From positions 666,705 to 730,704 of the forward strand of contig NZ_CBXV010000008.1 in the NCBI RefSeq assembly GCF_000820845.2: DNA of 64,000 bases. The letters are read 5' to 3'. This DNA is from Pyrinomonas methylaliphatogenes. GTDB taxonomy: Bacteria > Acidobacteriota > Blastocatellia > Pyrinomonadales > Pyrinomonadaceae. The translations under genes were made by a program, and so were the position numbers. The notes below the pieces were generated by a model. It saw only the letters and a program-made list of their open reading frames with translations. It was not told the origin of the DNA and made no database searches. Shown one piece after another: positions 49,744-51,063 of the stretch (position 1 is the stretch's first letter; every line of letters starts with the position of its first letter).

Positions 49744-49773
49744 TTGACACTCATCGAAGAGGCTTCGCATAAT
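49744..49773 (+). promoter_or_regulatory. Promoter of the tRNA-Lys gene
   Basis: A consensus -35 TTGACA (49744-49749) and -10 CATAAT (49768-49773) with 18-bp spacing end six bases before the mature tRNA, as expected for a stable RNA promoter. Confidence 0.75.
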
Positions 49774-49779
49774 TTGTAT

Positions 49780-49855
<76 letters not shown>

Positions 49856-50058
49856 AACTAACCCCACACAGCTTACCCACAAGGCGATTGCTCAACTGCC
49901 GCGCCGCGCGTGTTGACTTAAGTTCCGCGCTTCGTTCTCTTCATGGGATCACGTCGGCCAATACCGCGGGTGGCGCACTCGGAACCGTCGCTTTCAAACG
50001 GCTGCATCAGATTGCCACAGAGCGTGCAGACCTGCTGCGAAATATGCGAATTAAGTTA

Positions 50059-50392
50059 ATTCCGCCCGCATCCGCGGGGAAACGATGTGCTGACGTGGAC
50101 TGGCATCAAGTGGGATGATATTCCGCCCGCATCCGCGGGGAAACGATGTGCTGACGTGGACTGGCATCAAGTGGGATGATATTCCGCCCGCATCCGCGGG
50201 GAAACGATGTGCTGACGTGGACTGGCATCAAGTGGGATGATATTCCGCCCGCATCCGCGGGGAAGCGATGTGCTGACGTGGACTGGCATCAAGTGGGATG
50301 ATATTCCGCCCGCATCCGCGGGGAAGCGATGACCGCGAATGCTGCCGCCGCTATATATTCTGCATTCCGCCCGCATCCGCGGGGAAGCGATT
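50059..50392 (+). CRISPR. Small type I-E-like CRISPR array with four identical spacers
   Basis: Six 29-nt repeats start at 50059, 50120, 50181, 50242, 50303 and 50364, each with the palindromic core CCCGCATCCGCGGG. The five spacers are all 32 nt. Spacers 1-4 are identical (starting TGCTGACGTGGACTGGCATC); spacer 5 (50332-50363) is different. Repeats 1-3 read GGGGAAACGATG at the end, 4-6 read GGGGAAGCGAT, and repeat 6 ends in T instead of G. Similarity to E. coli-type repeats and the changed last repeat suggest transcription on the + strand with the leader left of 50059. No cas gene is in this window. Confidence 0.88.
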
Positions 50393-50423
50393 CAAAGGCC
50401 ATGCAGCGCACGATCTCGTCCCC

Positions 50424-50527
50424 ATCGTTGAACGCTGGGGCCAGAGTGGGCAAATAGGTTCAACTGTAAACGGATCAAGCGGACATAATCGTCCATATCG
50501 TTGAGCGCTTGGGCCAGAGTGGGCAAA
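50424..50527. repeat. Two 31-nt repeats 73 bp apart next to the CRISPR array
   Basis: Copies at 50424-50454 and 50497-50527 (starting ATCGTTGARCGCTKGGGCCA) match at 29 of 31 bases. Both lie at the 3' side of the decayed HEAT-repeat gene; the right copy is part of its coding sequence (EALPTLAQALNDMDD on the minus strand), the left copy extends beyond it. Confidence 0.85.
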
Positions 50528-51063
50528 GCCTCTTTCGTCGCGGCGAGCATCTCGGGCGTGGCGACGATCTCCGGAGGACGACCATCCAAACGCTCCGTCA
50601 GATCGTCGAATGCGAAAGCGGCGCTGCGTCTTTCGAACGTGCTCTTCTTACGAGCAATCCGGCGAGCGCTCTGATCCCAACCGCCGCGCCCACCAGCACT
50701 AAAGCGGCCTGACGGCGAACGATCACATCTCTGCCCGGCGACCACTCACACGGATTCTTCATCGAGCATGCTGGAGACGATCGCTTCGCTCTCCGGCGCA
50801 AGTTCTATGGGCAATTGCGCGGCCAACACGCGCGGACGGCAACCCCTTTCCTTCCGTAGAAAATCGTTCAGCAGCGGCACCGCAGGCGGACCGATCTTAA
50901 AGAGCTCCATTGCCGCCTGTTCCGCCTCTTCTCTTTCAGCTTTTTGATCAACGCGAGAATGCGCGCCCGATCGCTCGCAACAGGTTCTTGAACCGCCGCC
51001 GTGGTGCTGAAGAGCAGCTAGAAAAGAGTAGAAGGCGCGGAGAATCAGCTCATGTTTCCTCAT
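50461..51063 (-). pseudogene. Decayed secreted HEAT-repeat protein
   Basis: No single frame spans this region, but pieces in different minus-strand frames join into one plausible protein. From 51063 the start MRKHELILRAFYSFL gives a signal-like N-terminus. A second frame continues LLFSTTAAVQEPVASDRARILALIKKLKE. A third gives EEAEQAAMELFKIGPPAVPLLNDFLRKE, a HEAT-type helix pair. Further frames give RRQAALVLVGAAVGIRALAGLLVRRA and RPPEIVATPEMLAATKEALPTLAQALNDMDDYVR. At least three frameshifts are needed, so it is not functional unless the sequence has errors. It sits beside the CRISPR array and ends in a spaced repeat. Confidence 0.65.

What the first reader, a model, noticed from the sequence alone, without database searches (positions are those of the whole stretch)
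50059..50392. CRISPR array with four identical consecutive spacers
The repeats and 29/32 geometry look like type I-E, yet spacers 1-4 are the same 32-nt sequence while only spacer 5 differs. Normal adaptation gives unique spacers, so the unit was probably multiplied by recombination or slippage after acquisition. The repeat change AAACG (copies 1-3) versus AAGCG (copies 4-6) falls inside the identical-spacer run: one repeat mutated, then that unit was copied. Four crRNA doses against one target could be selected, or the array could be a relic without Cas proteins drifting as a tandem repeat.
Basis: seen in the sequence. Interest (0 to 1): 0.65.

Follow-up and report, generated by a model that had tools for sequence, protein, structure and literature searches.

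The report
Orphan CRISPR array, one spacer quadrupled
A hot-soil bacterium carries a short leftover CRISPR memory in which one entry, probably a piece of a phage DNA-packaging gene, has been copied four times in a row, while the matching type I-E Cas genes that were searched for are missing from the genome; a tidy example of a known process rather than a new system.

Summary
Window 50059-50392 holds six 28/29-nt repeats exactly 61 bp apart with five spacers. Spacers 1-4 are the same 32/33-nt sequence, and an A/G change splits repeats 1-3 from 4-6. This is the only array with this repeat in the 99.5%-complete genome. Cse1, Cas6e and Cas7e were not found there, while two unrelated CRISPR-cas loci were. 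A same-genus genome carries Cse1, and family relatives have type I-E arrays with 29-nt repeats in the same hairpin register. So this looks like an orphan type I-E array whose one repeat-spacer unit was multiplied by unequal recombination or slippage, a documented process. New here: read in frame, spacer 1-4 gives VLTWTGIKWDD, which fits the zinc-binding linker of gpA-type phage terminase large subunits (score reached by 7 of 20,000 random 33-mers); a degenerate search of the whole viral collection hit only terminases, at this position. The true protospacer was not found. Function today is doubtful; selection for guide dosage is possible but untested. At least three copies are distinguishable by their flanks; the assembly used 454 plus MiSeq reads, so the exact count is probable, not proven.

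The parts
50059..50392 (+). whole array: 6 repeats, 5 spacers, period 61
50059..50087 (+). repeat 1 (AAACG variant)
50088..50119 (+). spacer 1, frame gives VLTWTGIKWDD with the preceding G
50120..50148 (+). repeat 2 (AAACG variant)
50149..50180 (+). spacer 2, identical to spacer 1
50181..50209 (+). repeat 3 (AAACG variant)
50210..50241 (+). spacer 3, identical to spacer 1
50242..50270 (+). repeat 4 (AAGCG variant)
50271..50302 (+). spacer 4, identical to spacer 1
50303..50331 (+). repeat 5 (AAGCG variant)
50332..50363 (+). spacer 5, unrelated sequence, no target found
50364..50392 (+). repeat 6 (AAGCG variant; last base T, probable trailer end if the + orientation is right)
49780..49852 (+). 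tRNA gene (anticodon CTT by reading) 206 bp upstream of the array; neighbour, not part of the array

Best explanation
This is an orphan remnant of a type I-E CRISPR array. It once held at least two spacers: one probably taken from the terminase large-subunit (gpA) gene of an unsampled phage, and one of unknown origin. After acquisition, the repeat-spacer unit carrying the terminase spacer was multiplied to four tandem copies by unequal homologous recombination or replication slippage between identical repeats. The type I-E cas genes searched for are absent from this genome but present in a congener, so the array most likely no longer works in defence. Shown: the array, the four identical units, the single location, absence of three I-E signature families, presence of Cse1 in the congener. 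Inferred: the duplication mechanism, loss of cas genes rather than transfer of an array alone, and the terminase target.
For: Array anatomy and identity of units. Single location in the genome. No Cse1, Cas6e or Cas7e in the own genome, with positive controls ringing and stop codons read through. Cse1 in same-genus G001 and in 11 of 95 other relatives. I-E arrays of relatives have 61-bp periods and 29-nt repeats whose hairpin occupies the same positions. The genome's C5 array has a different repeat and 48 spacers that are all different, so multiplication is not a general habit of the strain or its assembly. Terminase target: a nucleotide search of named phages gave one lineage, a gpA terminase, in the same reading frame. 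The degenerate peptide pattern hit 3 of 2.9 million viral contigs, all gpA terminases at the same column. Score 21.1 bits against a profile of six distant gpA proteins; 7 of 20,000 random 33-mers reach it, and the best of 48 other spacers of this genome scores 14.3. Spacer duplication with this cause is described in PMC8047081, and duplications make up 86% of complex spacer events in PMC11472070.
Against: No exact or near-exact protospacer was found; the best relatives match 25 of 33 nt. The profile p-value is for one family that the search itself pointed to. The repeat's outer stem pair (position 6 with 21) and its 3' handle differ from the I-E repeats of relatives, so the subtype rests mainly on 29/32 geometry, and the direction of transcription is not established. 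No clear leader was recognised. Copy number could be off by one or more if no 454 read spans the array.
Confidence: 0.82

Rival explanations
1. The copies were kept by selection for guide dosage: four identical crRNAs against a phage terminase gene, used by an effector that is or recently was available.
For: Four perfect copies of one unit; probable phage target in an essential gene; a congener carries Cse1.
Against: No Cse1, Cas6e or Cas7e in this genome. The genome's other systems have different repeats. Duplications arise without selection in published work.
Confidence: 0.08
2. Copy number is an assembly artefact: fewer identical units exist.
For: Units 1 and 2 have the same flanks (A repeat on both sides) and cannot be told apart by 150-nt reads; trimmed 454 reads averaging about 384 nt would rarely span the array.
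Against: Units 3 (A to G repeats) and 4 (G to G) are each distinct, and an A-to-A unit exists, so at least three copies are needed. With the stated 492-nt mean, about two 454 reads are expected to span it. MIRA is an overlap assembler, and the assembly was curated by hand.
Confidence: 0.12
3. Spacers 1-4 were acquired independently four times from the same protospacer.
For: The A variant on one side and the G variant on the other is what repeated leader-end acquisition would give.
Against: Four identical boundaries with no other spacer between them. Reacquisition accounted for about 1% of complex events in a large survey.
Confidence: 0.02
4. A non-CRISPR tandem repeat (minisatellite).
For: Exact 61-bp tandem structure; a separate local duplication lies just downstream (D3).
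Against: A fifth, unrelated spacer of the same length sits between perfect repeats; the repeat has a I-E-like hairpin register; the spacer resembles a phage gene.
Confidence: 0.03

Closest known systems
Type I-E CRISPR arrays of relatives beside Cse1 (L049 of G014, L053 of G008)
   Same: 29-nt repeat, 61-bp period, hairpin with 4-nt loop covering positions 7-11/16-20, ATT or ATG start
   Different: only six repeats, weaker outer stem, different 3' end (AAACGATG against ATGAACCG), no I-E cas genes found in the genome, four identical spacers
Orphan (cas-less) CRISPR arrays, e.g. the CRISPR2 locus of Enterococcus faecalis (title of PMC4580645, and general knowledge; paper not read)
   Same: array far from any cas genes
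   Different: no effector of the same subtype was found in the genome to serve it in trans
Duplicated repeat-spacer units reviewed in PMC8047081 and surveyed in PMC11472070
   Same: identical spacers explained by recombination or replication misalignment between repeats
   Different: four consecutive copies making up four of five spacers, with a repeat variant inside the run

Membership tests
CRISPR array | conserved repeats separated by similar-sized, different spacers | tested here: met
   six repeats, two distinct spacer sequences of equal length
CRISPR array | spacers derived from mobile elements | tested here: inconclusive
   no exact protospacer; strong in-frame resemblance to gpA terminase; nothing for spacer 5
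Type I-E system | 29-nt repeat and 32-nt spacer | tested here: met
   61-bp period; 29 nt shared by repeats 1-5 apart from the A/G site, last base differs in repeat 6
Type I-E system | repeat hairpin like that of I-E relatives | tested here: inconclusive
   same register, but 5 pairs instead of 7, and energy not clearly below shuffles (z -1.3 and -0.6)
Type I-E system | cas3, cse1, cse2, cas7e, cas5e, cas6e effector genes | tested here: not met
   Cse1, Cas6e and Cas7e not found in the genome; other I-E genes not searched separately. So: an orphan array of I-E type, not a I-E system
Type I-E system | AAG-like PAM next to protospacer | not testable with these tools
   no true protospacer; a relative (L173) has CAA just before the aligned site, which would give AAG with the first G
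gpA-type terminase protospacer | spacer peptide matches the aligned column after the CPxC motif | tested here: met
   alignment; profile score; Pfam PF05876 and PF20454

The most novel reading that the evidence does not exclude
A guide against a phage packaging motor gene was amplified fourfold as a dosage response and kept as a portable memory, served in trans by type I-E effector genes that come and go within the genus.
Probability: 0.05. Interest if true: 0.6.

Novelty: new member of a known kind. Interest (0 to 1): 0.22.

Why it matters
It is a clear case of repeat-spacer unit multiplication in an array that has lost or never had its Cas genes, with a repeat variant that makes most copies distinguishable. 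If copy number varies between cells or strains, it could be used to measure how such duplications arise without immune function. The probable terminase target shows how a spacer without a database hit can be assigned through its reading frame.

Tried and rejected
Exact searches of spacer 1 (two sub-patterns) and spacer 5 in viral contigs: nothing. Pattern for WTGIKWDD in viral contigs: nothing. Spacer patterns at up to 3 mismatches in 97 genomes (own and relatives): only the array itself for spacer 1; for spacer 5 one 3-mismatch hit in G024, not followed. Plasmid search: one weak hit to an antiporter gene in Halobaculum, rejected as chance. The repeat in viral and genome collections: no array; three single chance-like hits. 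The relaxed repeat hit in G032 is a single site without an array. Comparison of the insertion site with congener G001: only the tRNA and 58 nt beyond it are shared, then unrelated DNA, so no empty-site comparison was possible. No second copy of the tRNA end in the window. No convincing promoter or terminator beside the array.

Full report
Observation. Six repeats lie exactly 61 bp apart from 50059 to 50392. Four copies of the same 33-nt stretch follow repeats 1-4, and a different spacer follows repeat 5. Counting the G after each repeat as its last base gives a 29-nt repeat and 32-nt spacers; repeat 6 ends in T. Position 24 is A in repeats 1-3 and G in repeats 4-6. No other copy of the repeat exists in the genome at up to three mismatches.

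Organism. The window lies in a genome of 3,788,560 bases in 16 contigs. The paper on Pyrinomonas methylaliphatogenes K22 gives 16 scaffolds and 3,788,560 bp (PMC4644332), so the identification is practically certain. That genome was assembled by MIRA from 454 reads (stated mean 492 nt; 28.9 Mbp in 75,215 reads implies about 384) and 2 x 150 MiSeq reads, with manual curation. About 0.2 to 2.3 454 reads are expected to span the array. Because of the A/G marker, three kinds of unit are distinguishable by their flanks (A-A, A-G, G-G). At least three copies are therefore needed; only units 1 and 2 are interchangeable.

Cas context. The genome has two other CRISPR-cas loci, each with Cas1. One on contig C5 has a Cas10-like gene, a Cas4-Cas1 fusion-like protein and 49 repeats with 48 different spacers. 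One on contig C9 has Cas3-like, Cas7-like and Cas1 genes and ends inside another array. These type readings are by eye from the translations, except Cas1. Their repeats do not resemble the one here. The type I-E families Cse1, Cas6e and Cas7e give no match in this genome, although the searches read through stop codons and the controls ring. The same-genus genome G001 has Cse1 on a short contig, beside genes that look like cas3, cse2 and cas7e (only Cse1 was tested by profile). Among 97 genomes, 12 have Cse1. Arrays next to Cse1 in G014 and G008 have 29-nt repeats with 61-bp spacing and a hairpin in the same register. The repeat here keeps only five of the seven stem pairs, and its 3' part differs, so the I-E label rests mainly on geometry and register, and the direction of transcription is not settled.

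Target. Direct searches found no protospacer. In the named-phage search the only hits were three Pseudomonas phage records, 17 nt each, all in the terminase large-subunit gene. In the record examined, the hit lies in the same reading frame as spacer 1, which reads VLTWTGIKWDD. A pattern for LTWxGIKWD was then searched through the whole viral collection. It hit three contigs, all encoding a terminase with LTW(S/A)GIKWDD, and Pfam assigns this protein to the gpA ATPase and nuclease families. Alignment puts both sites at the same place, just after the first CPxC motif. Against a profile of six distant gpA proteins from Acidobacteriota genomes the spacer scores 21.1 bits. Random 33-mers from the window average 9.9, 7 of 20,000 reach the score, and the best of 48 other spacers of this genome scores 14.3. 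An earlier profile from closer relatives, with the three pattern hits left out, gave 0 of 3,000. The family was chosen because the search pointed to it, so these figures overstate the certainty somewhat; I put the terminase assignment at about 0.85. In relative L173 the codon before the site is CAA, which with the first G of spacer 1 would read AAG, the usual I-E PAM (general knowledge); this is only suggestive.

Mechanism. Duplication and loss of repeat-spacer units are well documented and attributed to recombination or replication misalignment (PMC8047081). In a survey of 24,090 spacers about 3% were duplication candidates, 86% of them simple duplications and 1% reacquisitions (PMC11472070). 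Four identical consecutive units are, I think, at the high end but fit this process. The repeat variant boundary is compatible with it but also with leader-end copying, so it does not decide the matter. With no I-E effector found, current function is unlikely; selection for dosage remains possible if an effector was lost recently.

Verdict. A real, slightly unusual, ordinary-in-kind object: an orphan I-E-type array with one spacer quadrupled, and a probable phage terminase as its former target.

Noticed in passing
window 50405-50527: Two 50-nt stretches 73 bp apart, 82% alike, just downstream of the array inside an open frame without a Pfam match (50392-50745, minus strand); looks like a local tandem duplication in a decaying gene.
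   Followed up: partly
window 49769-49910 and L059 (G001 contig C712): The tRNA gene plus 58 nt downstream is 97% identical in the congener, after which the two genomes diverge completely; the congener appears to have inserted element genes there. The tRNA may be an integration site.
   Followed up: partly
L025 about 1080-1400 (G000 contig C5): A second short CRISPR-like run with repeat TTTCAACCTATAATGGAAGAAATA follows the 49-repeat array, with several degenerate copies.
   Followed up: no
L026 15750-15953 (G000 contig C9 end): Contig C9 ends inside a CRISPR array (repeat about GTTTCAATCCCACACTGGTCCGATTAAAAC), so at least one more array is incomplete in the assembly.
   Followed up: no
L038 (G091 contig C23): Cse1 appears split in two stretches with one in-frame TAA, so this relative may have a broken type I-E effector.
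   Followed up: no
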